From assembly GCA_031271295.1 (NCBI GenBank), contig JAISVZ010000119.1, forward strand, positions 1 to 64,000: a stretch of DNA of 64,000 nt. The letters run 5' to 3'. Positions 4,898 through 52,075 of this stretch are shown piece by piece (position 1 is the first letter of the stretch; every line of letters begins with the position of its first letter). Made by a program: the position numbers and the translations under genes. This DNA is from Clostridiales bacterium (GTDB lineage Bacteria; Bacillota; Clostridia; Lachnospirales; WQUN01). Below the pieces are notes generated by a model. That model saw nothing but the letters and a program-made list of their open reading frames with translations, made no database searches and was not told the DNA's origin.

Positions 4898-4985
4898 GTT
4901 CTAAAAACTCGAACCGAACCGATTCGAATGAAATCGTTGCTTCAAATAATATATATAAAACGCTTAGTTCTTGTTTTTCAAAGTA

Positions 4986-6149: not shown

Positions 6150-6234
6150 TATCGCTTGCCTTCTTTCTGTATGTTGTTTTTTGCAATATATAACTCTTTA
6201 TGACTTCGTAAAATATTGATTTTCTTTATACAAT

Positions 6235-7968: not shown

Positions 7969-8006
7969 ATTATCTTCAGCCTCCTAAATAACACTTTACG
8001 CGGCTT

Positions 8007-9758: not shown

Positions 9759-11106
9759 TCAAATTACCGCCTTCCAGCATACTATCGAATGCCAAATAAA
9801 TTTTGAGATCGTGCATATCTTGACTGAAAAGAACTTGAAACGAATTTATGTTTAGAAGTTCCGCTCTAAACTCATCTTGAATATTTGCCTTTTCCGGGAA
9901 AACTATCAACGTATCCGTATCCAAAACTTCCTTGAAATTCTGTTTTTCAAATGATATTCCGAACAGTTTCTCATCATTTCCGGTTACCCTTCTATCCCAT
10001 AGCATACACGGCTCAAAGCATGTCCCTTTTAGAAATGGCAGCAGTTTCTTTGCATCTTGCCCTTTCGCGCCGCATCCAATAACTCGCCCAACAGGTTTCC
10101 GAAATTTATTAGGCTTATTTGCCAATGCTTCTTTTGCGTTATTAACAAAATAATGCATGACGCCTTTTTCGTGCTCTGACAAAAATTGTTTATACGGAAA
10201 AAGCATGTTTTTTGCCGCCTCTTGCCTCTCTTTATCCAGCTTTTCTGCCACCTCGTTATCGCTTCTAATATCATCAAAAGATAGAAGTGTGTTTGCGCGG
10301 AAATAATCAGTCAGGTTCTTTAGAATAGTTTTTCTTTTTTTATCGGCTGCTTCATCCGGAAGTAAGTCAATTGCGCTATAGCACAAAATTCTGTAGTTGT
10401 TATAGTATTTAAATGCCCTCTCTGCGTCGTTTCTAACCTTACTCATCCCGTCGCACCCATCGTTCACATAATAAAGAGGCATATTAATATACTTTACTTT
10501 TCCGTTGTATGCGGTTATCGGTATAATAAACCCAGGTTCATGTGACCATCTATTGCTTGTGTTGTAATTCTCAATTACTTTACATTTCCTAAAATAAGAA
10601 GAACGTACCATATATCGCCATACCGTCAAAGCTGAACTCGTAAAAAGTATCCACTCTGTAGAAAAAAATTCCATTTGAACTCGTTGCGTAATATCATTGA
10701 AAATTTTGTCCTTGCCGCTAATTATGTACGCACGCTTATCACATACCACATAATCATAATCCGAATTATTATCTAACCATTCCGCCATTTTAGAAACGTA
10801 TTGCGTATCAAGCTCGTCGTCAGCGTCAATAATGCAAATGTAATCTCCAGTGGCACATTCAAGCCCTTTTTTTGCGGCTGTGCAAATACCGGAATTCTCT
10901 ATATCAATTACTTTATTTAAATATCCGCGTTTCTCTAACTTAGTTACATAATCTGTTATTATGCCGCGTGTACCATCGGTTGAACCATCATTTACAATAA
11001 TAACTTCTAAATTATCCCACTCTTGACTTATGACAGTATTAAACATATCACCAATATATTCTTCTTTATTATAGCATGTAATAACCATACTTACTTTCCC
11101 TTGCAT
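9751..11106 (-). CDS. GT2-family glycosyltransferase with C-terminal Rossmann-like module
   Basis: A GT-A fold glycosyltransferase of family GT2: KVSMVITCYNKEEYIG at the N-terminus, IIVNDGSTDGT near 38-48 and the metal-binding IDADDELD near 92-99. The C-terminal 110 residues hold the island's Rossmann-like module (GRVIGCGAKG, then MLWDRR and LIVFPE). I took ATG 11106, 7 bases after GGAGG, rather than the GTG at 11112, which touches the site. The same GT2-plus-module layout occurs at the ends of the proteins at 11133 and 15994. It should elongate the glycan with a nucleotide-activated sugar. Confidence 0.85.
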   Translation of the reverse strand: MQGKVSMVITCYNKEEYIGDMFNTVISQEWDNLEVIIVNDGSTDGTRGIITDYVTKLEKRGYLNKVIDIENSGICTAAKKGLECATGDYICIIDADDELDTQYVSKMAEWLDNNSDYDYVVCDKRAYIISGKDKIFNDITQRVQMEFFSTEWILFTSSALTVWRYMVRSSYFRKCKVIENYNTSNRWSHEPGFIIPITAYNGKVKYINMPLYYVNDGCDGMSKVRNDAERAFKYYNNYRILCYSAIDLLPDEAADKKRKTILKNLTDYFRANTLLSFDDIRSDNEVAEKLDKERQEAAKNMLFPYKQFLSEHEKGVMHYFVNNAKEALANKPNKFRKPVGRVIGCGAKGQDAKKLLPFLKGTCFEPCMLWDRRVTGNDEKLFGISFEKQNFKEVLDTDTLIVFPEKANIQDEFRAELLNINSFQVLFSQDMHDLKIYLAFDSMLEGGNLNE

Positions 11107-11132
11107 ATACACACCTCCAATATTCGGAAATA

Positions 11133-13646: not shown

Positions 13647-13651
13647 ACAAA

Positions 13652-14839
13652 TTACCCCCTAAGTTCTTTTAGATTAATCCATTCTCCGAAAATCGCTTCA
13701 TAATCAAAGGGGTCAAATTTATTAAAACCCGCATACTCGTGGAAAGTCATTTCGCCTATGTATAATTTCCCGTCAATTTCATAAAAATCAACTCGCAAAA
13801 AACTTATCCCTTTGGACAGTTTTTCTGCGATATCAATCATTTTACCGAAATTTATAGGTTTGCTGAATGCTCGTTTATCACTGGGATAATGATTGCGTAC
13901 AGGTATTCTGTTCCAATCGTTATCAAAAAATGTTATTTTTAAACCATCATCAGCATTTTGCCCTGAACGTATGTAGGTACACCTTACTTTCCCATTAAAA
14001 CACATTAACTTATAGTCAAGCAGTTCTCCGTGTTCATCAGTTAAATATTCCTCTGCCAAGATTTTAGGCTCGATATTTTTATATTGCCATTCTCTGCTGT
14101 GCCAAAAATAATTTCTTCTCAACAGATCAGATAGAGCACGCCTAACACCGGCAATGTCAAAGCTTTGCTTATCTTCGCATATAAAATAGCCTCCTGAATC
14201 ATGATTGCATTTTAAAACAAAACGTTGCGGTAAGCTTTCAAAATCTATATCTTCCGTTCTATCCCATACACCCAAAAGAGGTGTTAGATATTCATCTCCA
14301 ACGATACCGGAAATAAATTTTCTTGCTTCGAATTTATCAGCCATTTTTGTATATACCGGCTTACGGTCATAGAGTTTTAGCCATTGCAGTTTTTCACTAA
14401 ACAACACTGGGTTTTTCAAATTTAACTCTTTTCCCATTTGGCGCATGTACTCTAATTTCAAAAATTCCTCATCGGTTAAGTCATTAATATTTTGCTCATC
14501 AATTTTGATGTAAAAGAAGTCCTTATTTCGATTCATTCCGCATGTTTCCTCAAGCTGACGGGCGATATTTTCAGCGCTTTTTTCTGATTTTACTGTAATT
14601 AGAACTTTTGCATCTGTCGTTTTAATTTCATTAAACGCTTCAACCGAATAAACGGGATAGTTCATAAACTTATATTTTTGTTTTTCAATATCATTATCTA
14701 TATATCCCATTAGTTTCATCCCTAATGCTTTTAAAAGAAACAAACCAAAATCTTCCGGTTTTTTTATACCAAAAAAGAATACTGTTTTGCTTTGCAGTAA
14801 ACTTCTAATTTCAAATGTGGTCATAGTTATTTGCTTCAT
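13652..14839 (-). CDS. TupA-like ATP-grasp enzyme with N-terminal Rossmann-like module
   Basis: The N-terminal third is a version of the shared module (KTVFFFGIK at about 14-22, then GYIDND). From about residue 125 it matches TupA-like ATP-grasp proteins: NPVLFSEKLQWLKLYDR, VLKCNHDSGG, ILAEEYL, DYKLMCFNGK and FLRVDFYEIDGK. TupA forms an amide-type bond in teichuronopeptide synthesis, so a role in adding an amino acid or similar group to the glycan is plausible. It is packed 3 bases after the upstream GT32 gene and 5 bases before the GT32-GT2 fusion. Acceptor and donor are unknown. Confidence 0.83.
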   Translation of the reverse strand: MKQITMTTFEIRSLLQSKTVFFFGIKKPEDFGLFLLKALGMKLMGYIDNDIEKQKYKFMNYPVYSVEAFNEIKTTDAKVLITVKSEKSAENIARQLEETCGMNRNKDFFYIKIDEQNINDLTDEEFLKLEYMRQMGKELNLKNPVLFSEKLQWLKLYDRKPVYTKMADKFEARKFISGIVGDEYLTPLLGVWDRTEDIDFESLPQRFVLKCNHDSGGYFICEDKQSFDIAGVRRALSDLLRRNYFWHSREWQYKNIEPKILAEEYLTDEHGELLDYKLMCFNGKVRCTYIRSGQNADDGLKITFFDNDWNRIPVRNHYPSDKRAFSKPINFGKMIDIAEKLSKGISFLRVDFYEIDGKLYIGEMTFHEYAGFNKFDPFDYEAIFGEWINLKELRG

Positions 14840-14842
14840 TTG

Positions 14843-15985
14843 TTACTCCCTCTTCTTTTCGTTTAATAAAGCCTGCTCATAGTAATTCCCCATCAGGTGT
14901 TTTAGTGTTTTTTGATCGTTACCAACAAGTGTAGTATCATAATGATGTACAGTAAACGTATTTTCGCTGACATACAGCTTACCGTTATTTGTAAACACAT
15001 ATGATGGCTTTGGAGCAAAACATTCTGGAGGATATATAGTCAGTTTACCTAATCTTTGCAGATGTCCATCCTGCGATAAACCTCGTTTTAACATAAATTT
15101 TGTTTCAAAAGAACTATTATACGCTAAATTAGGAGAGCCGTCCGAATTAAATAAAGTACCATCATAATTCTCTCTCATTTCATAGAACAATGGAAATTCT
15201 TTAACAGCTCCAAATCCCGAACCAGCATTTATTCTAAATTCTCCGTATTCGCTTTCAAAACCTATAAAAGCATCATTATAGAGTAATTCATCTAAAGACT
15301 TGAACATTTCAACATCAGTATCCATACAAATTCCGCCGTAATTATAAACAACATCAAGTCTTGCATATGTGGCTACTTTTGACCATCGGTTTGCCAGAGC
15401 AGCTTCCTTTGTGTACAAAAACTTGCTAACATCATAATTGCTCTCGTTCCACTCAATAATATCATAATCCGGACAATGTAACCTCCAACTCCCAATAAAC
15501 AATTTATGCCTTTCAGGTATGGGCTTATCACCAAACCAAAAATAATGAATTATCTTGGGTATTACCTGCTTATAATTTGCTCTGCAACTCGTTAGTATTG
15601 ATTGATGTCTACAACGATGTTCCATATCAGTTAAAAATTGAAGTTGGTAGCATTCAGCATCTTTAAGTTTATGAACTCTGTTCAATTGTTCGTATATTTC
15701 ATTAAAAGAATTCCAGCTATTAATTAATATGGCAGTATTGCTGTCAGCCTCGTTGAACAGCTTTTCAGGCCTAAAAATGGGTATTTCTGTATCGTTTAAA
15801 GTCGTCGTTTTTCCCCACAAATTTTCTTTATTATCATAAAATGAAGAAATACGTTTTTCAATTTCATATTTTGGGAATAGCCGACAAAAATTCTTAAGAT
15901 TACCTCCCCTTGCACCAAAGCATACTAAGTTTTTATTAGCAACATTACTTATAAATTCTTTTACGGCAACATTTCGTAAAACCAT
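14843..15985 (-). CDS. GT32-type glycosyltransferase with N-terminal Rossmann-like module, paralogue
   Basis: Second gene of the leftward operon, 8 bases after the megafusion. The module reads NLVCFGARGG at about 19-28, followed by FYDNKENLWG. The GT32-type domain has IPKIIHYFWFG, RWSKVATYARLDVVYNYGG and MDTDVEM, with the metal-binding DTD. The order of parts and the C-terminal ENTFTVHHYDTTL are shared with the proteins at 3758 and 11133, so all descend from one ancestor. GGAGTG lies 9 bases before ATG 15985. Its specificity cannot be inferred. Confidence 0.85.
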   Translation of the reverse strand: MVLRNVAVKEFISNVANKNLVCFGARGGNLKNFCRLFPKYEIEKRISSFYDNKENLWGKTTTLNDTEIPIFRPEKLFNEADSNTAILINSWNSFNEIYEQLNRVHKLKDAECYQLQFLTDMEHRCRHQSILTSCRANYKQVIPKIIHYFWFGDKPIPERHKLFIGSWRLHCPDYDIIEWNESNYDVSKFLYTKEAALANRWSKVATYARLDVVYNYGGICMDTDVEMFKSLDELLYNDAFIGFESEYGEFRINAGSGFGAVKEFPLFYEMRENYDGTLFNSDGSPNLAYNSSFETKFMLKRGLSQDGHLQRLGKLTIYPPECFAPKPSYVFTNNGKLYVSENTFTVHHYDTTLVGNDQKTLKHLMGNYYEQALLNEKKRE

Positions 15986-15993
15986 TCTTCATA

Positions 15994-18612
15994 TCACTCC
16001 AAAAGGTTATTGTTTGAATATTTAAGTACCTTAAGTTGCTTGCTCAGTTTCAAACCCTCGTCAATCTCATACCTGTACCATATCGCTGCAGGGCACTTTT
16101 CCATCAGGCATTTTATCTCATCAACAACCTCCTGCGCCGCAGGGAAAACAAACACAATATCGTTCTCTGTAAGTTCCGCAATATTCGGCAACGCAACGCC
16201 GCCACCCCCGCCGTCCTTATCCCACAAAACACTCGGTTCCCAAAGCGTACCCTTAAGTTTCGGCAACATTTTAGCGGCGGATTTCCCCAGCGCACCATAG
16301 CCAATAATCCTTCCTTGCTTGCGGCACTGCGGTATCAATCCCTTTACAAACGCGAACACAAGCGCCTCTATAAATGAATATTCGTCCTCGCCAATTTGCT
16401 CAATGGTTATTTTCGGGCATATTCCCAACCAGTTATTTATAAACGAAAGCAGTTCGTCAAAAATTAAGTTGGAACTTCTTTTGCCATCCGGTTTTGCGCG
16501 GCAGACGCCATACAAACTGACTAACCGCTGAAAAGAAGCGATTCCGAGCAAAAACTGCTTTTGGTAAATATCTACTACAGTATTTGGCAATGCGTCAAAC
16601 ACGCTTACAATCAAAGCAAAATATTCGTCAACATACTTTAAAAATCTTACCTCGTCTGATTCTCTGGACATTCCGTCTATTCCGATATTGTAGATATATA
16701 ACGGTTCATCAAACGCTTTCATTTTGCCTTTGTAGGCGGCAAGCGGAATGCTAAAACCGGGTTCGTATGTGCAGTGCCCCAAGCCTTCGTAATTGTTGAT
16801 AATATTGCATTTATTAAAATAGCTTGTGCGAACTAAGAAATTCCAGCAAGCTCTGTTTGTATTTTTCGCCAAAAACAATTCCAAAGAGTATTCGCCGTTC
16901 ATATACATTGGGTGGCGATTAAACTTTATCGATCCGTCGGCGGATCTGTAATAATAATCACAGGAGCAATACTCATACTCATCATGTTCTTCCAGCCATT
17001 TCGCCATTGTTGAAATATATTTACTGTCAAGTTCGTCGTCCGCGTCCACTATGTTTATGTATTTTCCGGTTATTCTCTTTAAGCCTTCCCTTACGGCGGC
17101 GCAAGCGCCTTTATTCACTTGGTCTATAATTACAACCTTGTACCCGCGGGCGGCTAATCTTTCCTCAAACGAAGATATTACTTGCCGTGTGCCGTCTGTT
17201 GAGCCGTCGTTAACAAGAATTAACTCAATATTATCCCACTCTTGGTTAAGAATGCTTTCAAGCATAACGCCAATGTATTCCTCTTTGTTGTAACACGCCA
17301 TAACCATGCTAACTTTTCCTTGCAACAAAGCGGCCTCCTTCCTGCGTTTTGCTATTTGCAGTTCTTCATTTTTTCTTATTGCTTGCGCGGCTTTTTCCGT
17401 TTCCTTTTTCAGAGGTAAATCCCCATCGGCGAAAACGTCGTGAAAAATAACGTCTTCCGTAAGTTTTATATACTCGTCCCATTTTTCGGTTAAGTTATAG
17501 CGGTTTTTAAGTTCCGCAATCCACTTTTCCGAATGCTCAAATTCCCGGAAAACCCGCGAATACCTAAAAGATAACAACGCTCTAACCAACGCCAAATCCG
17601 GCGAATGGTTTTCCCAGTAATATTCCTGATCAAAAAAATTAAGCTTTTTATTTTGCTCGTTATAAAAGCAGTTCGCGGGAACAAGTTCCCAATAGCAATT
17701 TCCTTTTGCCGAAGCTTTGTATATGGAACTTCGGATATTATCAAATTGCTGTGTCACTTCTTCAAAATCAATTGTCCCCAGCGCAACTTTTTTCGCCCAA
17801 TAATCCCATAAGGTTGGTTGGTTCAACCGTTCCATAACCAAAGCGTTACCTTCAAGTTTTACGGGCAGTACATCAACTCCAAAATTCGCAAGTTCCTCAT
17901 GGTTTTGCAGTATTTGCAGTAAACTTTTTTGCCCGTCCGGGTGCAGCGCCATTTTACGCACCGTGCCGTCATTACGCACCGTTGTGGCAAACCGCTTTGC
18001 GCTGCTGCGGTAGGCGGTTACGGCGGCATAATCCACCGGGCAGGGAGCGTCCGCCACGCATACACGCGCTTCCGCCAAATACGCGCCGCACATAAATTCA
18101 AACGCGCCGCCGCGTATTACCTCGCGGTATAGCAAACTCTCGTCAAATTGCAGGTTATCATCGTTTAATATGTAAGAAACAAGCCTCTGGTTAAGAAATT
18201 CGTTCGGCAAATAGGCATCCGAATATATTTCCCTTGCAAACCAATGGTCGGTAAGCGGGTAGTACCATTTTTGCCCTTCAAAACCCGCCGCTTGCAGCCT
18301 AATTTGAAGCTCCGCCTTGCTTACCCTGCCGCTTTGCCCCTCACGCCCTAAAAGAGAAGAATACGGCAAGCCGGTTTCCGGGCTTTTCTGCCCGCTCCAG
18401 TAACGAAGCGCAAACGGGTTTTCATACGCCAAAAGCAAACGACCGTGCGGCGACAATTCATTTTTGTAACCGCGCAAGGCTTCTACGGAAAAATCCTCCG
18501 GGTCTATAACTATTTTGTAATCTATATCCTTCTCGAAAGGATACCAACACAAAATTCCTTCCTTCATGGGGGATGCTTGGTAAAATTCATATAATTTGTT
18601 GTTGGGTTTCAT
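15994..18612 (-). CDS. megafusion: methyltransferase remnant, kinase-like domain, GT2, Rossmann-like module
   Basis: First gene of the leftward operon. Residues 1-180 resemble the C-terminal half of a class I methyltransferase (LSPHGRLLLAYENPFALRYW) but lack the glycine-rich SAM site. Residues about 190-400 resemble a kinase/phosphotransferase fold (VMERL near 259-263, LVPANCFYN near 310-318, NFFDQE near 325-330). GT2 starts near 432 (GKVSMVMACYNKEEYIG, NDGSTDGT, DADDELD). A C-terminal module follows near 785 (GRIIGYGALGKSAAK, VLWDK). GT2 and module are close to the gene at 9751. The gene is visibly richer in GC than the other island genes, suggesting a different origin or longer residence. 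The first two domains may be structural only. Confidence 0.72.
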   Translation of the reverse strand: MKPNNKLYEFYQASPMKEGILCWYPFEKDIDYKIVIDPEDFSVEALRGYKNELSPHGRLLLAYENPFALRYWSGQKSPETGLPYSSLLGREGQSGRVSKAELQIRLQAAGFEGQKWYYPLTDHWFAREIYSDAYLPNEFLNQRLVSYILNDDNLQFDESLLYREVIRGGAFEFMCGAYLAEARVCVADAPCPVDYAAVTAYRSSAKRFATTVRNDGTVRKMALHPDGQKSLLQILQNHEELANFGVDVLPVKLEGNALVMERLNQPTLWDYWAKKVALGTIDFEEVTQQFDNIRSSIYKASAKGNCYWELVPANCFYNEQNKKLNFFDQEYYWENHSPDLALVRALLSFRYSRVFREFEHSEKWIAELKNRYNLTEKWDEYIKLTEDVIFHDVFADGDLPLKKETEKAAQAIRKNEELQIAKRRKEAALLQGKVSMVMACYNKEEYIGVMLESILNQEWDNIELILVNDGSTDGTRQVISSFEERLAARGYKVVIIDQVNKGACAAVREGLKRITGKYINIVDADDELDSKYISTMAKWLEEHDEYEYCSCDYYYRSADGSIKFNRHPMYMNGEYSLELFLAKNTNRACWNFLVRTSYFNKCNIINNYEGLGHCTYEPGFSIPLAAYKGKMKAFDEPLYIYNIGIDGMSRESDEVRFLKYVDEYFALIVSVFDALPNTVVDIYQKQFLLGIASFQRLVSLYGVCRAKPDGKRSSNLIFDELLSFINNWLGICPKITIEQIGEDEYSFIEALVFAFVKGLIPQCRKQGRIIGYGALGKSAAKMLPKLKGTLWEPSVLWDKDGGGGGVALPNIAELTENDIVFVFPAAQEVVDEIKCLMEKCPAAIWYRYEIDEGLKLSKQLKVLKYSNNNLLE

Positions 18613-18796
18613 ATAAGGCGTTACTCTTCCTTCTATGTAAATCAGGCAAATTTTACATCATTGATTCGGAACTGGTAAATATTCTTAATATTAATAATCC
18701 CACAATGTAAATTATTATGTTGCTGATTTTAAGTATACCGTTTTACTTCCAATATTGCAAGCGTATTTTAATGGGTTTTTACCTTGGGTTTTTACC

Positions 18797-18825
18797 TTGT
18801 GAAGGTGCAGACATTATGTTATACT
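18797..18825 (+). promoter_or_regulatory. probable sigma-70 type promoter for the AAA-ATPase pair
   Basis: TTGTGA at 18797-18802 and TATACT at 18820-18825 are 17 bases apart, about 100 bases before the GTG start. A 13-base direct repeat (GGGTTTTTACCTT) lies just upstream. The rest of the 311-base gap between 18612 and 18924 holds the hairpin described separately and AT-rich sequence; I see no gene in it. Confidence 0.5.
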
Positions 18826-18855
18826 ATATATGTGCTTACATGAACGGGAAGCGAA

Positions 18856-18899
18856 AAGGCCGGGTTATCCGCACGGGCAATTGCCGTGTTGCCGGCCTT
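18856..18899 (+). repeat. long leader hairpin before the AAA-ATPase gene
   Basis: AAGGCCGG (18856-18863) pairs with CCGGCCTT (18892-18899), and inside it CACGG (18872-18876) pairs with CCGTG (18884-18888). No T-run follows, so it is not a standard terminator. It lies between the promoter and the ribosome site (GGGGAGGG, 18909-18915) and would be in the mRNA leader. A role in translation control, mRNA stability or as a repeat element is possible. Confidence 0.6.
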
Positions 18900-18923
18900 G
18901 CATCCTAAGGGGAGGGCAAAACC

Positions 18924-20669
18924 GTGGTTAATCAAAACAACATTCCGCTTAATATTACCGGGGATTTAAACCGCATAAATTATTCCGTTGACGATTTTAA
19001 AAGAATTAGAGAACGCGGTTATCTTTATATAGACAAAACGAAAATGATTGACGATATGCTGACATTCGATGAATCCAAAGTTATATTGTTTACTCGTCCC
19101 CGCCGTTTTGGAAAATCGCTGAACATTTCTATGCTTCGGTATTTTTTTGATATGACGGAAAGCTCTGCGGAATTATTCAAAGGGCTTTACATTGAAAATT
19201 CAGAATTTTTTAAAACTCATTTAAACCAATATCCGGTTTTATATTTAAATTTTAAGAATGCGGACACAAGATCAATACGAAATTTGGAAAAGGGAATTAT
19301 AATATCCATCGAAGAAGCGGTGCATGAATTATATAAAAAATATAACTTTGAGGAACTCAAAAATATTGATTTGAAAACATCAGATGGAAATGTAATTCTG
19401 GTTGGCGTTAAAAACATCACAAGAATTTTGTACGAAAAAACAGGGAAAAGGGTAATTGTTATAGTGGACGAATACGACAGCGTAATAAACCGGGCGTATG
19501 GTACAGACGGTTGGAAACAAGCAACAGAGATTATTAAAGGTTTGTTCGGCGCGTTGCTTAAATCTAACGAATATTTGGAAATGGGGGTACTTACGGGCGT
19601 AAGCAAAATTGGAAAAGAGCTTGGTTTCAGCGACATGAATAACCTTTTTGTATGCTCGCTTACAAAAGAAATATATTATGAATATTTCGGTTTTACGGAA
19701 GATGAGGTAAAAAAGCTTTTATCTGTTAATAATATCGAAATGTCGGATACTTTTTACCGCATGTATAACGGATATCACCTTGATGACACGCCGAATATGT
19801 TTAATCCGGCTTCAATCCTAAAGTTTTTATTCGAATTTAAGCGTACAGGCAAAATAAAGTTTTCTCCATTTTGGATTAATACCGCCGCCAACCAAATTTT
19901 AAAGGATAACATTGCCAAGCAAAGCGGCAAATTTAAAAACAAACTGTTAACGATGCTTAGCGGAAAAACGATAAAAGAATCCATATTTGAAAGTATTGAT
20001 TACGATACTCTTTATAAGCAATCGCATATGTTTAGCCTGATGATTGATACAGGCTATATATGCCCGGTTTCTCAAGTGGATGTGGATTTGTTCGAACTTA
20101 AAATACCCAACGAAGAGGTTATATACGGTTATAAGGAAATAATCGGATTAATTGTGGGTACAGACGAAAACACATTGGAAACGTTATGCACAAACTTGGT
20201 CTCCGGAAACACGGAGAAATTCGAAGAAACACTCAATAAAATTTTATTGAGCGTTTCAAGCTTTCACGATTTTTCCGAAAAAGAAAACAGTTATCACAAT
20301 TTAGTTATGGGTGCGCTTTTGTATTTAATGGGGTCATTCACCATTTTTTCAAACCGCGAGTCTGGCCTTGGCAGGTACGATATTGCCATGTTTCCAAAAG
20401 AGCATTCTAAAAACGAATACCGCCCAATTATTATTGAGTTTAAAGCCGCGCGGGAAAAAGCGCAGTGTTCTTATGACGACTTGGCGGAATTAGCGCGGAA
20501 AGCGCTGGAGCAGATAAAAACCAAAAAATACGCGCAACCAAACGAAAACGCGTCCGCATACGGAAACGCACATGCCTACAAGCCGGAGGATTTTATGTTA
20601 ATAGGTATCGGCGCGCAGGGAAAACAGTGCGCGGTTGTATCTAATCAGGGAGGTGAAAACAGTGATTAA
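18924..20669 (+). CDS. AAA-ATPase-like / PD-(D/E)XK nuclease family protein (copy 1)
   Basis: This matches the widespread AAA-ATPase-like plus PD-(D/E)XK (DUF1703) family. The Walker A motif is TRPRRFGKS at 57-65, Walker B is VIVIVDEYDS in the first third, and the nuclease-like end shows GRYDIAMFP and PIIIEFKAA, the spaced D and ExK pattern. Function is not settled for the family; it is often multi-copy and linked to genome islands. The GTG start has GGGGAGGG upstream. Its last bases overlap the start of a second copy, so the two are translated in tandem. Confidence 0.82.
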   Translation: MVNQNNIPLNITGDLNRINYSVDDFKRIRERGYLYIDKTKMIDDMLTFDESKVILFTRPRRFGKSLNISMLRYFFDMTESSAELFKGLYIENSEFFKTHLNQYPVLYLNFKNADTRSIRNLEKGIIISIEEAVHELYKKYNFEELKNIDLKTSDGNVILVGVKNITRILYEKTGKRVIVIVDEYDSVINRAYGTDGWKQATEIIKGLFGALLKSNEYLEMGVLTGVSKIGKELGFSDMNNLFVCSLTKEIYYEYFGFTEDEVKKLLSVNNIEMSDTFYRMYNGYHLDDTPNMFNPASILKFLFEFKRTGKIKFSPFWINTAANQILKDNIAKQSGKFKNKLLTMLSGKTIKESIFESIDYDTLYKQSHMFSLMIDTGYICPVSQVDVDLFELKIPNEEVIYGYKEIIGLIVGTDENTLETLCTNLVSGNTEKFEETLNKILLSVSSFHDFSEKENSYHNLVMGALLYLMGSFTIFSNRESGLGRYDIAMFPKEHSKNEYRPIIIEFKAAREKAQCSYDDLAELARKALEQIKTKKYAQPNENASAYGNAHAYKPEDFMLIGIGAQGKQCAVVSNQGGENSD

Positions 20670-43158: not shown

Positions 43159-43575
43159 GTGAACGGTAACAGGAAGGGAACAAGGAAACGAAGCGACTTA
43201 ACGGAAATTGATGTGCTCGATTTAAGCAGATTGCCGGTTAATACCGATAATTCCGAACTGTGGTATTGGCTGGAGTTTATGAAATCGAACAATGAGGAGG
43301 TTTTGGAAATGATTGCGGAAAGAAGCCCTCAGATGAGAAAAGCCGTTGGATTCCTTAAAGAATTATCTGCGGACGAGCAAACCCGATTGATTTTTGAAAG
43401 CCACGAAACGGCAAGACGCGATATGTTGTCCAGATTGGACGGGGCGGAACTTAAAGGAAGGCTTGAAAGAAATTACGAAATTGCCCGAAACCTGCTTAGA
43501 ATTAACTTATCTGCCACAGAAATCGCCAAAGCGACAGGTTTAAGCCTTGAAGAAGTTGAGCTTTTAAAACAATAA
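43159..43575 (+). pseudogene. C-terminal remnant of an Rpn-family nuclease (PD-(D/E)XK transposase-like)
   Basis: The 138-residue reading frame matches only the end of Rpn/PDDEXK-family proteins: ELWYWLEFMKS, AVGFLKELSADEQTRLIFE, AEIAKATGLSLEEVELL-like sequence. The catalytic N-terminal half is missing and there is no ribosome site before the GTG at 43159. Rpn proteins promote recombination and are often part of shrinking mobile families. It is probably a dead copy left by deletion. Confidence 0.7.
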
Positions 43576-43671
43576 GAAGGTTTTGGAAATGATACATGAA
43601 AGCTTCAGGCAAATATTGCCCGCCACATGCAGGAGCGTGTTAATCATTATAACCCCACCTCTCAACTTATA

Positions 43672-43768
43672 CTAATTCTGTTTAAAAAGTTTGAACCCGG
43701 CGCTTGAAAAACACCGAAAATCACGGCGATTTTGGGGGCTTGCCTTCAACTTTTTAAATTGGAATTAG
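43672..43768. repeat. 97-bp imperfect inverted repeat, MITE-like
   Basis: Arms at 43672-43694 (CTAATTCTGTTTAAAAAG...) and 43745-43768 pair almost fully; an inner stem (CCGAAAATC with GATTTTGG) lies between them. It sits in the 267-base gap between the Rpn remnant and the end of the helicase gene. It could be a small non-autonomous mobile element or a bidirectional terminator. I see no other feature in this gap. Confidence 0.6.
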
Positions 43769-43842
43769 CATTATACTTTTATAGCCGTAAGAAACGTGTT
43801 TGCTTACAACCCCTAAAATAAAATATAATTCTGATGCATATT

Positions 43843-46800
43843 TTAATTTAATAAATATTGCTTTAAAAATATTTGCGCTGAAACTCTATTTAAAGACGCG
43901 TGGAAGTCCTGATTGTAGTAATCCCGAAGACATTTGTAGCAGGAAGGTGAGCACTCACACTGCGAGCATATATCATAAGCCTTGCGGATAACACTTTGAA
44001 AAACGCTCCAATCATCAGCTATCCGGTGAATATGCCCTGCACCTCCCGGAACGCTGTCATACAAAATAATTGAGTATTGAACATTCCCTTTTGAGGCATA
44101 AAGACATCCATTTATATCCGTACCTTCAATATCAAGCACCTGCGATGCCGCCCTAAGCAAGGCGTACATCACAGAACGCATTGTATTTAAATCCGCATTT
44201 TCCGAAAACGTTAACTGAACAACATCCGTTTTGAAAATGTGAGATAGCTGATACGGATATAATTTAGTATTTGAACAGTCGTGTCCATATGAAGTTTTAT
44301 GCCGTTCTTCCACAACATAATCCCACTTCTTTTGTTCTTTGCGGCTCTTTGTATATCCGCAGTATCCGCAAACACTAAACTCAGCATCACAGCTAATCAT
44401 TAGCGAATCATTTTCTGTAGATTGCAATATAATTTGTTTATCTCCGAAACGGAATGCACTTGAATCTAAATCATGACGTTCGGTATCTCCAAGGTAAATA
44501 ATGTCGCCGCGGTGATACTTTAGCGGTTTGCGGCTACCCGCCGGAACTATATCACTTGCGTCGCCGCCAACTACGAAGCCCTTTCGGGGTTCAATATTCT
44601 CTTTTATTCCGCTGTCAATTATAGTACCGCAAGCAACACAAGTGATGCTCTCAATAGGTTTTTTGCTAAAGTTCGTTATTTTGCACTGCGGACATTCCGC
44701 TGTATAATACAACTCCCAATCTGCTGTTTTGCGCCGGTCTTTAGTTATGTATCGGCTTCGGTAAATATAGCCGTCGGCGACAACTTCCGCTCCCGGTGCG
44801 TATTCCGAAATTCCAAGTTGAAGGTCTCTTTGTAACTCTACGCTTTGTTTGGTGTCGTTAAGTGCGTTAGGTTTGAGTTCAACCACATCAACCGGAAAGC
44901 CATATTTAGGCAAAACTCCCGATCGAACAAGAAAGTCGATCAAATCAGTTTTTTTATAACCGTCCCCCTCTTTTGTAGAACGCCGGTGATCTTTTAACAG
45001 CCGTTCAAATCGTGCCGCAGCTTGATAATTTTTTTCCTTTGCCGCTTCTTCCATCTGTTCCGCTAACCACACGGATAAATCACGAAAATCATTTACGGCT
45101 ATCGTAAGTGCTCCGTTTTCACCAATTAACCGGTCAACCCACGAAAACGATGCTAATCCGAGAGATTCAAACAGTTCATTGGGTACACAGCGAAGCAAAT
45201 AATTCAGAACAGAGGAAGGTTTACTGGAAAGAAATTCGCAAAGGCGCTCATATCCGTTTCCGTTTAAAAATTCGTCCGCATCGTTGCTGTTGTATACATC
45301 TTGAAATTGAGTGAAAAACTGCGAGAACGCAACGGCATAAATGTGCCTTAAAACAATTTTTATATTTCTTATTTCAAAAGCGGGTGCTTTTATCGTTCCT
45401 GAAATCATATCGGTTGGATGAGCAAAAAATGTGATATCATGAGAAGATAATTTGGCATAGGTCAACGAAAATGCCGCAGAACGCAGTTCGCGTCCTGCGC
45501 GCCCGGCACGTTGCACATAATTAGCTGGAGATGGCGGAATGTTTCTGAGGAATATCGACTCAAGGGAACCTATATCAACACCCATTTCAAACGTTGTTGA
45601 GCAACTTAGTGCATTTATTTCCCCGTTTAAAAATTGTTCCTGATATTTGCGGGCGCTGTCTTTTTCTATCTGTGCCGTGTGCTCACGTATATAAAACGGG
45701 GCAATATCTGCTTTTGCATATAAAGCAGCGTAGTGGTTATTTTCTCTCAAGTTTTTAGTAGTTATGGGTATCAACTTACCGCCGCAGCGAGGATATGCGC
45801 ATCGGTTATTAAAATTCATTGTTGTTACACGAGCGCAAGTTTCACAAATGTATATATCATCATCAGCCGGAACTGTAATAACAAAATCCTCTATCGACAA
45901 GAAGCGTCCATCGCCTTTTCCTTTTAATGACCTGAGTATATCGTTTTTCGAAAGCAAATTGAAATAATCCTCAGCAATTTTATATGCCTCATTTTCCGAA
46001 ACTCTCAAAGAAGAAACAAGTCGGCGCAAGCGCCCGTTTAGATAAAACCTCCCATTTTTCTGAGTTCGCGGAAGCCAACCCATGAAGGAAGCTGATTCTT
46101 TACCTGTTTTACAGCGAACAATGAGTTTTCTGGAATATGAATAAAAAATATCCGCTAAATCGTCGCCGTCCAGAGGTGTTGTGGGCGGTTCTTGCAACGC
46201 TCCGTGAAATGCGACATCCATTAGCAACAAATCCAGGAGGGTTTTTGCATCAGTTACGCTCAATTCGTACTTAGCTGCAAATTCCGATGCAAAAACTTTA
46301 TTACATGATGGCATAATTGATACGGCGCCTAAAGATGAGAGACTGCTGGGACGACGGGCAGTGTATGCCTCGCTTAATAGCGCAATCCATGCATTGCGTC
46401 TGCTAATAGGCGCTAAGGTGCCGCTTTTACCAAGAATAGCAAAAGTTTTGTTTACATCAAAATAACGCGCAAGCTCATCCGCAAATGTGCTAAGATTCCA
46501 TGGTTCCCGCTGCATTTCCGCACGATGTTGCTCTGCTACAAACCATATTCCGCGCCTTCGCAAAAACTCTTTGTAACTTCGTTCCATATATGGTGCGAAA
46601 AATGCGGCGTCTCCCCTGCTATCTGAAAAGCACAAGAATTGTCGCTTTTTCATAACCGGCATATTCTCATACAAAGCGGTGGCAAGAACTGAGGTTGCCG
46701 CCTCACTGCCAAGGTAAAAGCGCCTAAGATCGCCATAGGAACAAGCAGGGCAACGCACAATTGCGCTTTCCTTACTTTTTTGCGCCTTAATGGCTTTAAC

Positions 46801-48369
46801 TCCGTACTTACCCATACACTGACAGACATTTTTGTCGCTCGAATGCCTTATTGCTCCGCATTTAGCGCAAATTATATATTCGTCTGGAGGAGTTTCGGTT
46901 TCGTCATCAGTCAGAATGCCGTCATCATCGTCTTTAATAAGATAATATTCGGTGCTCGTGTCACGGCTGTTTTCCGGTAGCTTTAATATTCCATTCTTTT
47001 TATCATTTATCCCAATAACGGCAATACGTCCGCAGTCGGTGCAAACAGCACATTCAAAGGCCTTTTGCTCGCCAAAGACCGTTTCAGGCGTAAGAGACAT
47101 ATTGTATGGCGGCGTGAGTGAAATATAAGCTCCTTCAAGTGCGCGGATAAAAAGATGGTATCTTGCCCTTACAAGCGGAACGCCATTTGAGTTGATTGAA
47201 CGCGCGCAAGCTGAAATAAAATCAACGACCTCGCTCTCTTTCATATCTGTTGTATTGGCTATTTCGGAAATCGTAACGGGCTTGCTTGCTATAGTCCTAA
47301 TTTTGTGATACTGGTCGCTGGCAATACATATGTCAAATAAGTTATTATCCGAAATGTCTTTTAGCGATTTTATCTCCATGTGAGTAAGTGTACGGGTGGA
47401 TTCAGGAATAGTGTGTGTAATCGGCATAGAGCGGATAACTGATTGGAATTTATGCCCACAAAGTCTTTCTCCAAAAGCAAAGATTTGAGTATTACGACTA
47501 ATGTCACCGAGCGTAGCACTTGTGAGGATATACTGCGGGCTATATCCTTTATCGGTAAGTCTCGTTTCAACACGGCGAACCAACATTGAAGCTTCAATTC
47601 CTGTGGCTCCCTTGTATATATGAGCTTCATCCAGAACAATAAAACGCAGTTTTGCTTTACTAAATACCGCATCGTCATTAGGACGGATACACATGTATTC
47701 AAGCATAGAATAATTTGTTATTAGAATATGCGGTGGCTTTTCGCGCATAGCGTCGCGGGATATCCGTTCGTTAGGCATAGGTTCGAACTCGTATGTTGCG
47801 CGATATTTCATTTGCCCGGCTTTTTCAGTTTGCTCCGTATTTCCGTTGTAAACTCCAAAAGTAATACCGCTGTTGCAAAAAACATCACGCAATCGTTTTA
47901 CTTGGTCGTTAATAAGCGCATTCATTGGGTAAATAACGATAGCCCTTACGCCATCGTCAAGTTTGCCTGTCAATTCCTGCTCACGTAACAGCGAGTTTAC
48001 AATTGGTATTAAAAAGCACTCAGTTTTACCTGAGCCGGTACCGGTAGTAACAATCATATTTTCGCCCTTGGCGGCGGAACGAACTGCAGATTCCTGATGT
48101 AAATACAGCGGACGCTCAAGTTTGAAACCATGCCCAAATTTTTCGAATAAAGGCGACATTACGCCTTCGGCTACTAATTCGCGAATGGTTGCGCCGGTTT
48201 TGTAAGCGTCGCCGAGCTCAAGATACGGACCCTTGGAGATAACGCCATCTTTGCGCAGTTCGTTTTTTAGAAGCCGCGCATAGTGCTTAACCGCAATAGA
48301 GAGTGTTGTTGAAACATAATCGGCAAATGTATCCTTTATAGCTTGAGATAAGACAACTGGATTAAGCAT
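43843..48369 (-). CDS. large DEAH helicase with DUF1998/MrfA-like zinc-binding tail
   Basis: A 1508-residue protein. Superfamily 2 helicase motifs: Walker A TGTGSGKT at 109-116, DEAH at 247-250, SAT at 284-286, QRAGRAGR near 990. Several CxxC pairs lie between and after the helicase lobes (around 430, 510, 560, 860, 1240 and 1370). The end has CSQCECSPSCYKCLRDYY, the cysteine cluster of DUF1998/MZB domains. Such helicases occur in MrfA-type repair and in the DISARM, Druantia and Dpd defence systems. It is the last gene of a three-gene operon and starts with TAATG on the stop of the gene before it. I see no phospholipase-D, SNF2 or methylase partner, so none of those named systems fits. Confidence 0.85.
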   Translation of the reverse strand: MLNPVVLSQAIKDTFADYVSTTLSIAVKHYARLLKNELRKDGVISKGPYLELGDAYKTGATIRELVAEGVMSPLFEKFGHGFKLERPLYLHQESAVRSAAKGENMIVTTGTGSGKTECFLIPIVNSLLREQELTGKLDDGVRAIVIYPMNALINDQVKRLRDVFCNSGITFGVYNGNTEQTEKAGQMKYRATYEFEPMPNERISRDAMREKPPHILITNYSMLEYMCIRPNDDAVFSKAKLRFIVLDEAHIYKGATGIEASMLVRRVETRLTDKGYSPQYILTSATLGDISRNTQIFAFGERLCGHKFQSVIRSMPITHTIPESTRTLTHMEIKSLKDISDNNLFDICIASDQYHKIRTIASKPVTISEIANTTDMKESEVVDFISACARSINSNGVPLVRARYHLFIRALEGAYISLTPPYNMSLTPETVFGEQKAFECAVCTDCGRIAVIGINDKKNGILKLPENSRDTSTEYYLIKDDDDGILTDDETETPPDEYIICAKCGAIRHSSDKNVCQCMGKYGVKAIKAQKSKESAIVRCPACSYGDLRRFYLGSEAATSVLATALYENMPVMKKRQFLCFSDSRGDAAFFAPYMERSYKEFLRRRGIWFVAEQHRAEMQREPWNLSTFADELARYFDVNKTFAILGKSGTLAPISRRNAWIALLSEAYTARRPSSLSSLGAVSIMPSCNKVFASEFAAKYELSVTDAKTLLDLLLMDVAFHGALQEPPTTPLDGDDLADIFYSYSRKLIVRCKTGKESASFMGWLPRTQKNGRFYLNGRLRRLVSSLRVSENEAYKIAEDYFNLLSKNDILRSLKGKGDGRFLSIEDFVITVPADDDIYICETCARVTTMNFNNRCAYPRCGGKLIPITTKNLRENNHYAALYAKADIAPFYIREHTAQIEKDSARKYQEQFLNGEINALSCSTTFEMGVDIGSLESIFLRNIPPSPANYVQRAGRAGRELRSAAFSLTYAKLSSHDITFFAHPTDMISGTIKAPAFEIRNIKIVLRHIYAVAFSQFFTQFQDVYNSNDADEFLNGNGYERLCEFLSSKPSSVLNYLLRCVPNELFESLGLASFSWVDRLIGENGALTIAVNDFRDLSVWLAEQMEEAAKEKNYQAAARFERLLKDHRRSTKEGDGYKKTDLIDFLVRSGVLPKYGFPVDVVELKPNALNDTKQSVELQRDLQLGISEYAPGAEVVADGYIYRSRYITKDRRKTADWELYYTAECPQCKITNFSKKPIESITCVACGTIIDSGIKENIEPRKGFVVGGDASDIVPAGSRKPLKYHRGDIIYLGDTERHDLDSSAFRFGDKQIILQSTENDSLMISCDAEFSVCGYCGYTKSRKEQKKWDYVVEERHKTSYGHDCSNTKLYPYQLSHIFKTDVVQLTFSENADLNTMRSVMYALLRAASQVLDIEGTDINGCLYASKGNVQYSIILYDSVPGGAGHIHRIADDWSVFQSVIRKAYDICSQCECSPSCYKCLRDYYNQDFHASLNRVSAQIFLKQYLLN

Positions 48370-51263
48370 TAATTCATCTCCTTGTTATGATCGTATTCGA
48401 AAAAATCTGGTATGGAAAAGAATCTTGCAAGCTTTTGCGGAGGGTCTGTGTGTTTGTACAGTTCTACACCGTAGTCCCCGCTCTTATCAATAAACAGCCC
48501 CTCGCCGCCGTCAAATGAAATGTGAAGTCTGCGTGCGGTTTCACTTATAAGATAAATATCAACAGGATTAAAATTCGTAAAATAACGCGGCCCGTTTCTT
48601 GTAGAAAAGTATAAATTAGCGGTATAATGCGCGTAATCACCGCTAAGGTCGGTATAACCAAGATTTTCTGTGCCAACATACGAAATATTGTTTGCAAACA
48701 CAGGTTTAATTTCGGTATAGTTACCATCTGTAAGAGTTTTTGTAATACGCAATACCTCTCCTTTGAATATTACGGCAAATTTATCGCCAAAAATGACATC
48801 GCCTTCGTAAAGCAGACATTCAGATTTGCCAAAGGCGGTTTCGTTTTGAGTGAAAACCTGATAACGATACTTTTCCGATTTTGACGGAAAATTCTCTGAC
48901 AAAACGCGTTCACCAGGATTAACGGTAAATGAAACAGGGCTGATGTGTTTTGGCGAAAAAACAAACATAAGCTTTGTATCTTTATCGCCTACAAATGAAT
49001 GCCCGTTAAGCCACGATAAAGTGTTATCACTTAAATTAAACACCGGAGGTGCACAAAGGGACATTTTAAACACAACATCAAACAGTGTAAATTTTTCGCT
49101 ATCAACAAGCAGATTGACCGAAACCTTATCGTCATTTTTATCGTATGCTTGAACGGCATTGCCAATTGAATAATCGCTGCCGCCAAAACTGCTTCGGCGC
49201 GAAATTGGTGAATCTCCAAAAAAAAGAGAAATCGGCAGTGATTCGGGATAAATTACCTTCAAAATACTGCTCGGTGAGATTTCACCTTTCCATATGACAT
49301 CTTTTGGTATAGGGCTACCGTCCAACAACAATTTTATTTTCGGAATTTGAATTTGTATTTCGCCGTCACCGAATGGAATTTTCGCTTTATCTTCAAAGCC
49401 ATTCAGTGACTTTTCAAAACGCTCCTCATTTATATTAAGAACCACATTCCCATTGTCGCAGGTTTCAATATAATAGGAACGGTTGAAGCTAACATTGCGA
49501 TTATCCGTAATATAAAAGTTTATTTCGTCAAAAATCCTTCCGGAATCGGTATCCAACAGCGTTACGCTGTGCTCACCGTTTGCTTGAGGGGGAATGAACT
49601 GCCATAGGTTGTCATCCTTGCTTTGCACACTCAACTGTTCACCGTTTTGCAGTATCGCATTTACATTACTACTCTGAGATGTGCCAACAGCAGATATTGA
49701 AAACTCAGCCCGTGAATAAATTGGATAGTATCTTTCTTGATAAACGTAATTTATCTGTGTTTGCGGCAGTTTGAAACGAAGCGCCCCCTCTGGCGGGCGT
49801 AAGCAGCACAGCAAATTGCCATCGGCGAATATGGAAGCTTCACCCTCAAGGTAGATATCGTATAACTGAGCGAAGTAAGAACGGCGCTGCCTCTGTGCGC
49901 TGCCCTGGAATGCTATATTTATTGATTTTGGTGCAAAGAGCATATAGTTGCCCGGATCAATGGTTTTTCTTGTTTGGAGTTTGCCATTTTTAAATAGAAT
50001 TGCGTTAACACACAAACTGCAACCGGAAGAGAAAATTTGCTTTCCGCTAATTAGTATACAAGCGTTAAGTTTTGTAAAATCAGCGCTATTAATGGCAGTA
50101 AGCGGAATAATAACTTCTTCGGATGTGGCGGCATAGTCGTTGCCATAAATGCCAACGGTATTACGGAGTATTTCTTCCTCGCCAGAGTGTATAATTATTA
50201 CCGGATTATCGCGGCTCGCCAATCGTATTGACGGAATACGAATTGCAGGTTCGCCGCCATCATCAAGGGTATATTCAGCTCTGATTCGGCTGTATGAGAA
50301 AGCTACATCGGTAGTGCGCTTATGTACAGGGGCATTTTTCTCTGTTGAATGCGGAGGCGACATGATACTTGTATACAGTGAGTTTGAGTACGGCACCGGA
50401 ATGGTGCTTGCTGACGGTAAGATTGGCGATGATGGTTCGTTTAGCTTGCTTATGTACCACTGCATAAGAAGCACGTCAAGATACTCCTTGCCGGGCAATT
50501 CTCCTCCGTCAAAAAGTATATCCATCTTCTGCAAAGCTTTTGTTAAAAAGTGCTTCATAAAACCCGGGCGTGTTGTAATTAGAACTTTTAAACCTGCCTG
50601 AACGCCGTATATATTCCCGCGAATATCCTCATCCTGTTCAACTGTTACTCCCTGACATCGGTCACGCAGAACACTTGCCATGCGACCGATTGCCGGATCA
50701 TCCGCATAAACCGCACAGTCTAAATTGTTTTTGTAAAACTTAACCAGGAACTCGAAAAGCGCGTAGAAACTTTTTCGCGGTGAAAGAGCGTGAGCTAAAA
50801 CCGTGGAATAGTAATTGTTATCACCATTTGTGTCAACCACAAAGAAGCGGTTGTATTTTTGGCACGCTGTCTTTACCGCCGATGTAAGAATTTCATAGAT
50901 TTGCGAGGAATCTTTGTACCCGAACTGTTCCGCTATGTATGCCCAAAAACCGGAGTTTTCCGCTCTAGTCCAATCTTTAGCGTATTGAATCACAGTTAAG
51001 AGTACGGTAAGATAAGCCCAGCTATAAGCTTCTTGACAATTAAAGGAGTGTTTGATTACCTGCAGTGCGGTACGTTCAACAGATTGGCGGCTGTTTTCGT
51101 CCAATACAGCCATTCCAAGCAGAGGATACCTATATGCAATTGCTTCAACATAATCTTGAATTGATACCTTGCCGGATTTAGCAGCCCTTAACTGAGTGCG
51201 CATATCTTTTTCAATTTCAAGCGGAGTTTCGGCATTCCGCTCGGAATCTTCGTTCGACACCAT
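48369..51263 (-). CDS. 964-residue protein of unknown family, partner of the DEAH helicase
   Basis: I do not recognise the family. Residues 1-290 look mainly alpha-helical (YRYPLLGMAVLDE, KVLITTRPGFMKHFLTKAL). From about 330 to the end it appears mainly beta-stranded, rich in Asn, Ser and Gly with repeated Ig-like strand patterns. There is no signal peptide or membrane segment and no visible nuclease, methylase or ATPase motif. I took ATG 51263, 8 bases after AAGGAGAGG; the TTG at 51269 is too close. The stop overlaps the helicase start (TAATG), so the two are made in fixed ratio and probably act as a complex. A DNA-sensing or scaffold role is plausible but unproven. Confidence 0.75.
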   Translation of the reverse strand: MVSNEDSERNAETPLEIEKDMRTQLRAAKSGKVSIQDYVEAIAYRYPLLGMAVLDENSRQSVERTALQVIKHSFNCQEAYSWAYLTVLLTVIQYAKDWTRAENSGFWAYIAEQFGYKDSSQIYEILTSAVKTACQKYNRFFVVDTNGDNNYYSTVLAHALSPRKSFYALFEFLVKFYKNNLDCAVYADDPAIGRMASVLRDRCQGVTVEQDEDIRGNIYGVQAGLKVLITTRPGFMKHFLTKALQKMDILFDGGELPGKEYLDVLLMQWYISKLNEPSSPILPSASTIPVPYSNSLYTSIMSPPHSTEKNAPVHKRTTDVAFSYSRIRAEYTLDDGGEPAIRIPSIRLASRDNPVIIIHSGEEEILRNTVGIYGNDYAATSEEVIIPLTAINSADFTKLNACILISGKQIFSSGCSLCVNAILFKNGKLQTRKTIDPGNYMLFAPKSINIAFQGSAQRQRRSYFAQLYDIYLEGEASIFADGNLLCCLRPPEGALRFKLPQTQINYVYQERYYPIYSRAEFSISAVGTSQSSNVNAILQNGEQLSVQSKDDNLWQFIPPQANGEHSVTLLDTDSGRIFDEINFYITDNRNVSFNRSYYIETCDNGNVVLNINEERFEKSLNGFEDKAKIPFGDGEIQIQIPKIKLLLDGSPIPKDVIWKGEISPSSILKVIYPESLPISLFFGDSPISRRSSFGGSDYSIGNAVQAYDKNDDKVSVNLLVDSEKFTLFDVVFKMSLCAPPVFNLSDNTLSWLNGHSFVGDKDTKLMFVFSPKHISPVSFTVNPGERVLSENFPSKSEKYRYQVFTQNETAFGKSECLLYEGDVIFGDKFAVIFKGEVLRITKTLTDGNYTEIKPVFANNISYVGTENLGYTDLSGDYAHYTANLYFSTRNGPRYFTNFNPVDIYLISETARRLHISFDGGEGLFIDKSGDYGVELYKHTDPPQKLARFFSIPDFFEYDHNKEMN

Positions 51264-51322
51264 AATCAATACCTCTCCTTAATATTTTTTTTAAATTAAA
51301 ATCTCTAAAACCAATATGCCCC

Positions 51323-52075
51323 TTACTCCATTGATTTAACCTTTTCTTCAATAAAGGCAATTTCCCCTTCGTCAAGCCCGTATTTGGCGTAAAGTTGACG
51401 GTCTATATCCGGTACGGACTTCGACCAGTCGATATCGCTTTGCGCTGTGAAATCTTGCAGGGGAACTTTTGCCCAGGTGGAACGTGAATTATGTTGTGTA
51501 ATTTTTAAAACTCCTAGCAATAAGCGAGCAAACTTAGACTTTATATATTTCAGAACTGCGATAGCTTCGAACTCTGTGTCAAATCCTCCCACTGTAAGAA
51601 AAGTATCGGTGTGGGCAATTCTTGGATTACCTATAAAAGGATTACTTAGCGTTTCCCCAAGAACACCGGTATTATTGGTTTCAGCAATAATCACGCGCCA
51701 TTTATTAAATGACTCGGGGATCACTATATATTTCGCTGAGATCCATTTATACTCCCTTTTCCCGTTGCTTAAACCCAATATTTTTATATCATCAGTTTCA
51801 ACTTTATCATTCCTAAAGGCAAAATCCATTTTAGAAAAAGACTTAGAAACAATTTTGCTCTTTGTACCTTTGCCCTGCATATCTTCGGCTTCCGGAAATT
51901 CAGTAAAAAACAATTCGGAGAAACGATATATCCCTTGTGGCTGAACAATAGTTGAGAATTCCGCGTCACCAAATTTTGAAGTTTTATTCACAATGGGGCA
52001 TGGCAATTCTAATATCGTCTTCCAATACGTCAGCGTTTGCCGAAATATTGTCCCTATAACTTTCCTGCAATACAT
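51323..52075 (-). CDS. stand-alone protein resembling the C-terminal part of Eco57I-type R-M enzymes
   Basis: The 250 residues resemble the C-terminal target-recognition region of Eco57I-like restriction-modification enzymes: TDTFLTVGGFDTEFEA, FARLLLGVLKITQHNSRSTW, then VPLQDFTAQSDIDWSKS and LYAKYGLDEGEIAFIEEKV. The methylase motifs (NPPY, glycine loop) are absent. A good ribosome site (AGGAGG, 4 bases before ATG) and its own promoter suggest translation. It may be a truncated R-M gene or a free recognition domain serving the two genes downstream, which begin 60 bases later. The family match is from memory of typical sequences, not from a search. Confidence 0.65.
   Translation of the reverse strand: MYCRKVIGTIFRQTLTYWKTILELPCPIVNKTSKFGDAEFSTIVQPQGIYRFSELFFTEFPEAEDMQGKGTKSKIVSKSFSKMDFAFRNDKVETDDIKILGLSNGKREYKWISAKYIVIPESFNKWRVIIAETNNTGVLGETLSNPFIGNPRIAHTDTFLTVGGFDTEFEAIAVLKYIKSKFARLLLGVLKITQHNSRSTWAKVPLQDFTAQSDIDWSKSVPDIDRQLYAKYGLDEGEIAFIEEKVKSME

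What the first reader, a model, noticed from the sequence alone, without database searches (positions are those of the whole stretch)
43843..52075. Candidate undescribed defence system: recognition-like protein, unknown 964-residue protein and DEAH-DUF1998 helicase
Three leftward genes share one promoter and tight spacing (60 bases, then TAATG). The helicase resembles those of DISARM, Druantia and Dpd systems, but the other core genes of those systems are absent, while a protein like the C-terminal recognition region of Eco57I enzymes is present. The 964-residue protein is unlike anything I recognise. Neighbouring Rpn remnant and hairpin element point to a variable site.
Basis: partly seen in the sequence, partly recalled or inferred. 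Interest (0 to 1): 0.8.

Follow-up and report, generated by a model that had tools for sequence, protein, structure and literature searches.

The report
Divergent Druantia III-like phage-defence gene pair
Two genes in this Clostridia genome are a far-diverged version of a known two-gene bacterial immune system against viruses (Druantia type III), whose partner protein was invisible to the family libraries searched and which carries none of the DNA-cutting domains of the best-studied version.

Summary
The genes are real and correctly placed. The helicase is a DruE-type YprA helicase (PADLOC DruE, E 1e-168). The 964-residue protein matches nothing in Pfam, NCBIfam or PADLOC, but it is a remote DruH homologue. 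Profile comparison links its Clostridial family to actinobacterial DruE partners (99.8%) and the joint profile to canonical DruH (93%, collinear over about 520 columns; reversed controls 0.1%). In a survey of 319 genomes of the phylum, 18 of 22 assessable family members lie directly upstream of DruE. The two proteins co-vary (Mantel r 0.95), the partner diverging faster. So this is a Druantia type III-like DruH-DruE pair, not an undescribed system. It lacks the PLD nucleases of E. coli-type DruE, as is usual in the published 'III-like/III-B' branch. Its DruH also lacks the C-terminal helical region predicted for the mycobacterial relative and reported for E. coli DruH; I found no description of that. 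The 250-residue 'recognition' protein is the tail of a roughly 1,450-residue restriction-methylation enzyme whose first 1,200 residues are missing: a remnant, not a component. The hairpin is a dispersed repeat (at least 40 copies). In passing: the DruH-like family also occurs in three DISARM-like operons.

The parts
43843..48369 (-). DruE-like YprA-family SF2 helicase, 1508 aa: Walker A GTGSGKT (K115), DEAH (247-250), QRAGRAGR, DUF1998/MZB (1401-1481); ends 27 residues after MZB, so no C-terminal nuclease
   Evidence: PADLOC DruE3 E 1.2e-168; Pfam DEAD/Helicase_C/MZB; invariant motifs across 8 relatives; tree
48369..51263 (-). DruH-like partner, 964 aa: helical N-terminal region (about 19-275) then tandem Ig-like beta-sandwich domains (about 320-960); no C-terminal helical region
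   Evidence: hhalign; AlphaFold2 pLDDT 78.9; Foldseek to tandem Ig-type proteins; neighbourhood survey
51323..52075 (-). Remnant, not a component: C-terminal ~238 aa of a ~1450-aa type IIG (Eco57I-type) restriction-methylation enzyme
   Evidence: 51% identity to residues 1201-1453 of the 1453-aa Lactococcus enzyme, nothing of residues 1-1200 in the window; no copy elsewhere in the genome
52130..52158 (-). Possible sigma-70 promoter TTGGCT-17-TATACT
   Evidence: pattern scan only; count in region not above shuffles
43159..43575 (+). Truncated Rpn/PDDEXK_2 transposase remnant, neighbour
   Evidence: Pfam PDDEXK_2 positions 147-228 of 229, E 5.5e-8
43666..43773 (+). Palindromic repeat element, at least 40 copies in the genome
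   Evidence: own-genome search

Best explanation
A two-gene Druantia type III-like anti-phage system: a highly diverged DruH (964 aa) followed by DruE (1508 aa). Most likely mechanism: the Ig-like repeats of the DruH-like protein bind a phage protein made during infection (inferred from published DruH). It then licenses DruE, which loads on 3' single-stranded stretches of replicating phage DNA and unwinds or occupies them, blocking replication or circularisation (shown for other DruEs, inferred here). In this version DruE has no PLD nuclease and the DruH-like protein has no C-terminal helical region (both shown by sequence or model). Destruction of DNA, if any, would then need a host nuclease or an unrecognised activity in the DruH-like protein; otherwise the pair blocks phage DNA without cutting it (inferred). 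The adjacent 250-aa gene is a remnant.
For: Helicase: DruE models E 1e-168 to 1e-109, far above DrmA (1e-13) or DpdJ (1e-24). Partner: the Clostridial 964 family against actinobacterial DruE partners 99.8%, E 1.5e-28; actinobacterial partners against canonical DruH 90.5%; joint profile 93.4%, P 2.6e-7, columns 32-554 against 49-570 in order; reversed profiles 0.1%. Context: 18 of 22 assessable family members in 319 genomes lie directly upstream of DruE; 54 of 71 DruE loci with room upstream, plus at least 4 with mis-called DruE starts, carry the family there. Co-evolution: Mantel r 0.951, 0 of 2000 permutations, DruH-like less conserved than DruE in all 561 pairs, as PMC13192584 reports for DruH. 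Architecture: N-terminal helices plus Ig-like repeats, as in the mycobacterial partner and the published description of E. coli DruH. Published function: PMC13192584, PMC13316683, PMC12458937.
Against: No PADLOC, NCBIfam or Pfam model recognises the partner, nor does any PADLOC DruH model match its relatives. The direct Clostridial-to-DruH comparison is weaker: 58.9% with all members, 4-5% with smaller sets. It covers only the N-terminal half. Foldseek hits are generic Ig tandems with low TM-scores, and the solved DruH (9tud) did not appear, perhaps because of the library date. I could not identify the tested M. smegmatis DruH by its published residues. The III-B reference sequence GIH50614.1 was not available for the tree. 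No activity data.
Confidence: 0.8

Rival explanations
1. A distinct, undescribed defence system in which DruE is paired with an unrelated Ig-repeat protein that merely occupies the DruH position.
For: No family model matches the partner; the direct profile match to DruH is weak with small alignments; the C-terminal helical region is missing.
Against: A graded chain of homology from the Clostridial family to actinobacterial partners (99.8%) and from those to DruH (90-93%), collinear, with reversed controls at 0.1%; same gene order, helical N-terminus and Ig-like middle.
Confidence: 0.12
2. A three-gene system that includes the 250-aa Eco57I-type recognition protein as a sequence-specific guide.
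For: Same strand, 59-base gap, intact reading frame and a ribosome-binding site.
Against: It is the C-terminal sixth of a larger enzyme whose catalytic parts are missing; no homologue in any of the 100+ relative loci.
Confidence: 0.04
3. A housekeeping DNA-repair helicase (MrfA/YprA type) with an unrelated neighbour.
For: Shares DEAH, Helicase_C and DUF1998 with MrfA; PDB hit to YprA, E 2e-24.
Against: DruE models score far higher and the nearest solved structure is a Druantia-type DruE (9tu7, E 2e-83); patchy distribution, 20 of 390 other genomes of the class; constant pairing with the DruH-like gene.
Confidence: 0.02
4. A decayed, non-functional defence remnant.
For: Neighbours are remnants (type IIG tail, Rpn fragment); at 1508 aa DruE is at the short end of its relatives (mostly 1550-1735).
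Against: Both frames are fully open, all helicase and zinc motifs are intact, the junction is tight.
Confidence: 0.1

Closest known systems
Druantia type III (DruH-DruE), E. coli/Marinobacter type (III-A)
   Same: Two genes in the order DruH-like, DruE; DruE helicase core with DUF1998; partner with helical N-terminus and Ig-like domains; partner diverges faster than DruE
   Different: Window DruE has no C-terminal PLD nuclease domains (1508 against about 2100 aa); DruH-like is 964 against about 1100 aa, lacks the C-terminal helical region and is not matched by PADLOC DruH or NF038336
Druantia type III-like / III-B branch (PMC12458937)
   Same: Helicase usually without a nuclease; actinobacterial members with a DruH-like gene directly upstream group in the same tree region as the window helicase
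   Different: Clostridial members such as this one lack the C-terminal helical region of the partner; the published text accessible here does not describe the partner
DISARM class 1 (DrmA, DrmB, DrmC, methyltransferase)
   Same: YprA-type helicase and DUF1998 module; three relatives of the partner do sit in DISARM-like operons (L010, L183, L185)
   Different: Window helicase and DUF1998 are one protein; no DrmC or methyltransferase; PADLOC DrmA only E 1e-13
ARMADA, Dpd, Druantia I/II
   Same: YprA-like helicase
   Different: No BrxHII-like helicase, PglX-like methyltransferase, Dpd genes or other Druantia subunits beside the pair

Membership tests
Druantia type III (broad: DruH + DruE) | DruE-type YprA helicase with DUF1998 | tested here: met
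Druantia type III (broad: DruH + DruE) | DruH homologue immediately upstream | tested here: met
   remote homology only: joint-profile probability 93%, controls 0.1%; position and pairing
Druantia type III (broad: DruH + DruE) | DruH recognised by the curated models (PADLOC DruH3, NF038336); a detection criterion rather than a biological one | tested here: not met
Druantia type III-A (E. coli type) | Two PLD nuclease domains at the DruE C-terminus | tested here: not met
   protein ends 27 residues after MZB; therefore not filed as III-A
Druantia type III-A (E. coli type) | DruH C-terminal helical region (ATP/Mg dimer site) | tested here: not met
   model all-beta to residue 960, against helices 814-1126 in the mycobacterial partner
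Druantia type III-like / III-B | Helicase in the III-like branch of the YprA tree | tested here: inconclusive
Druantia type III-like / III-B | Usually no nuclease domain in the helicase | tested here: met
Druantia (any) | Protects against phage | not testable with these tools
   needs an infection assay
DISARM | Separate DrmA and DrmB, with DrmC and a methyltransferase | tested here: not met
[quoted passage not shown]
   only two complete genes in the operon
Type IIG restriction-modification (250-aa gene) | Nuclease, helicase and methyltransferase parts present | tested here: not met
   residues 1-1200 of the homologue are missing

The most novel reading that the evidence does not exclude
A Druantia III-like immune system with no nuclease at all: a DruH sensor without its C-terminal helical region, made of helices plus Ig-like repeats, switches on a pure helicase that stops phage DNA by unwinding or occupying it. 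The same sensor family is modular, being exchanged between Druantia and DISARM-like helicase operons.
Probability: 0.35. Interest if true: 0.65.

Novelty: new variant of a known kind. Interest (0 to 1): 0.42.

Why it matters
It assigns a protein family that the standard defence-finding models miss (found in 26 of 319 sampled genomes of the phylum) to the sensor side of Druantia III. That would turn many 'orphan' DruE helicases into complete two-gene systems. It also supplies natural DruH-DruE pairs without the nuclease-linked regions, which makes it testable whether Druantia III needs DNA cutting or only DNA engagement.

Tried and rejected
Direct family look-up of the 964-aa protein (Pfam, NCBIfam, PADLOC: nothing). 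tblastn in plasmids and a pattern scan of viral contigs with it (nothing). PDB sequence search with its profile (nothing). Foldseek against PDB and viral models: only generic Ig/FN3 tandems, so no specific fold assignment and no independent support for a baseplate J-like fold. Attempt to recognise the M. smegmatis DruH/DruE by length and published residue numbers among mycobacterial relatives: not found; one genome has a DruE of 1668 aa with matching K119 and C1516, but its partner does not fit, so I make no claim. The 250-aa gene as a component: rejected. Promoter evidence: no better than shuffles. Rejected systems: DISARM, ARMADA, Dpd, Druantia I/II.

Full report
What is there. The three leftward ORFs exist as described. 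The 1508-aa helicase scores E 1.2e-168 and 3.9e-164 with DruE3 and DruE1 models but only 1e-13 with DrmA and 1e-24 with DpdJ. Its Pfam make-up is DEAD, Helicase_C and the MrfA Zn-binding (DUF1998) domain. Helicase motifs and zinc cysteines are invariant among eight relatives. The closest solved structure is the Druantia DruE (9tu7 and others, E 2e-83).

The 964-aa protein. No curated model matches it. Relatives were found by whole-genome search in the order and class. Almost all lie directly upstream of a DruE-like gene. The canonical partner of DruE in type III is DruH (NF038336/YjiT; PADLOC DruH3 models; checked on Marinobacter). Simple HMMs do not link the two families. A scan of 84,980 species genomes with a DruE alignment gave 80 loci. 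Their upstream genes form a continuum from Clostridia through archaea and Bacilli to mycobacteria and other Actinobacteria. HMM-HMM comparison then gives: Clostridial against actinobacterial partners 99.8% (E 1.5e-28); actinobacterial partners against canonical DruH 90.5%; joint profile against DruH 93.4% (P 2.6e-7), collinear over columns 32-554 and 49-570; reversed profiles about 0.1%. I conclude remote homology to DruH over the N-terminal half. The C-terminal half is not alignable.

Is the pairing more than chance? In an independent sample of 319 genomes of the phylum, 26 carry a family member, the window's own genome and one already seen included. Of 22 newly fetched loci not cut by contig ends, 18 have DruE immediately downstream, one has a broken DruE nearby, two sit in DISARM-like operons and one has neither (my count from the listed loci). 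Of 71 DruE loci with at least 1.5 kb upstream, 54 carry the family there by the automatic rule, and at least four more (L105, L106, L110, L135) were missed only because the DruE start was over-extended. Identities of the two proteins correlate at r = 0.951 over 34 loci (0 of 2000 permutations), and the partner is the less conserved in every pair, median identity 14% against 34%. PMC13192584 reports the same contrast for canonical DruH and reads it as sensor evolution.

Anatomy. The AlphaFold2 model of the 964-aa protein (pLDDT 78.9, pTM 0.51) has a helical region at about 19-275 and then almost only beta-sandwich repeats to 960; Foldseek finds tandem Ig-type proteins. The mycobacterial partner (L107, pLDDT 81.8, pTM 0.46) has helices 11-261, beta domains 271-803 and a helical C-terminus 814-1126. 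That matches the published description of E. coli DruH, in which N- and C-terminal helical regions flank central domains. So the window protein is DruH-like without the C-terminal helical region, which in E. coli DruH carries residues at the ATP/Mg dimer site. The window DruE stops 27 residues after its DUF1998 domain, whereas E. coli DruE continues with two PLD nuclease domains. PMC12458937 says helicases of the separate Druantia III-like branch most often have no nuclease. The window helicase groups with Clostridial and actinobacterial DruH-like/DruE pairs and apart from the long-branched E. coli and Marinobacter DruE (quick tree, no bootstrap; its long branches make deep order unsure).

The 250-aa gene. 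It aligns at 51% identity to residues 1201-1453 of a 1453-aa Eco57I-type enzyme of a Lactococcus plasmid, the first part of the ORF aligning poorly, and nothing of residues 1-1200 is in the window. There is no other copy in the genome, and no homologue occurs in the collected relative loci. It is a truncated restriction-modification gene.

How it probably works. Published work: DruE unwinds 3'-tailed and forked DNA and assembles on single strands; DruH is the likely sensor of phage structural proteins (PMC13192584). In M. smegmatis both genes are needed, the proteins interact, phage DNA circularisation and replication are blocked, and a minor tail protein activates the system (PMC13316683). 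By homology I infer a sensor-helicase pair here. The step that cuts DNA is unassigned: neither known nuclease-linked region is present. Either a host nuclease finishes the job, the beta-rich protein has an unrecognised activity, or engagement without cutting suffices; PMC13192584 reports that against phage T3 DruE contributes mainly by DNA engagement.

Verdict. A Druantia type III-like system, a diverged variant of a known kind. Shown: gene structure, DruE identity, absence of PLD nucleases, partner-family association, remote DruH homology by profile. Inferred: sensing, activation, mode of inhibition and that the locus is active.

Noticed in passing
L010 (G118) 1-10477; L185 (G1094) 8679-20000; L183 (G1140) 1-9655: The DruH-like family also sits in DISARM-like operons: in L010 after DrmA, DrmB and a NERD-UvrD nuclease-helicase; in L183 and L185 before two unknown ~450-aa proteins, a GajB-like UvrD helicase and DrmA. 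This suggests exchange of the sensor between Druantia and DISARM-like systems.
   Followed up: partly
L011:13252-14976, L032:8739-10508, L034, L043, L065, L067, L068, L085, L093, L094, L112: A NERD nuclease-UvrD helicase gene lies directly beside DruE in about a dozen relatives, a recurrent third gene that could supply the missing nuclease; the window has none.
   Followed up: partly
L010, L011 (also L031, L058, L060, L061, L089, unscanned): Longer DruH-like relatives (1375-1527 aa) carry an N-terminal extension; in L010 and L011 it resembles the RNA-polymerase alpha C-terminal domain (best E 1e-17), possibly a DNA-binding addition.
   Followed up: no
window 43666-43773: Palindromic repeat of about 108 bp with at least 40 copies at 86-94% identity in this genome, a likely MITE or REP-like element.
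   Followed up: partly
window 43288-43322 and 43568-43602: 35-base direct repeat (83% identical) in and just after the Rpn remnant.
   Followed up: no
L076, L103, L117, L118, L120, L131, L134: Another group of DruE-like helicases is preceded by a different ~690-1020-aa protein, several with an apparent N-terminal membrane helix and not matched by the DruH-like profile.
   Followed up: no
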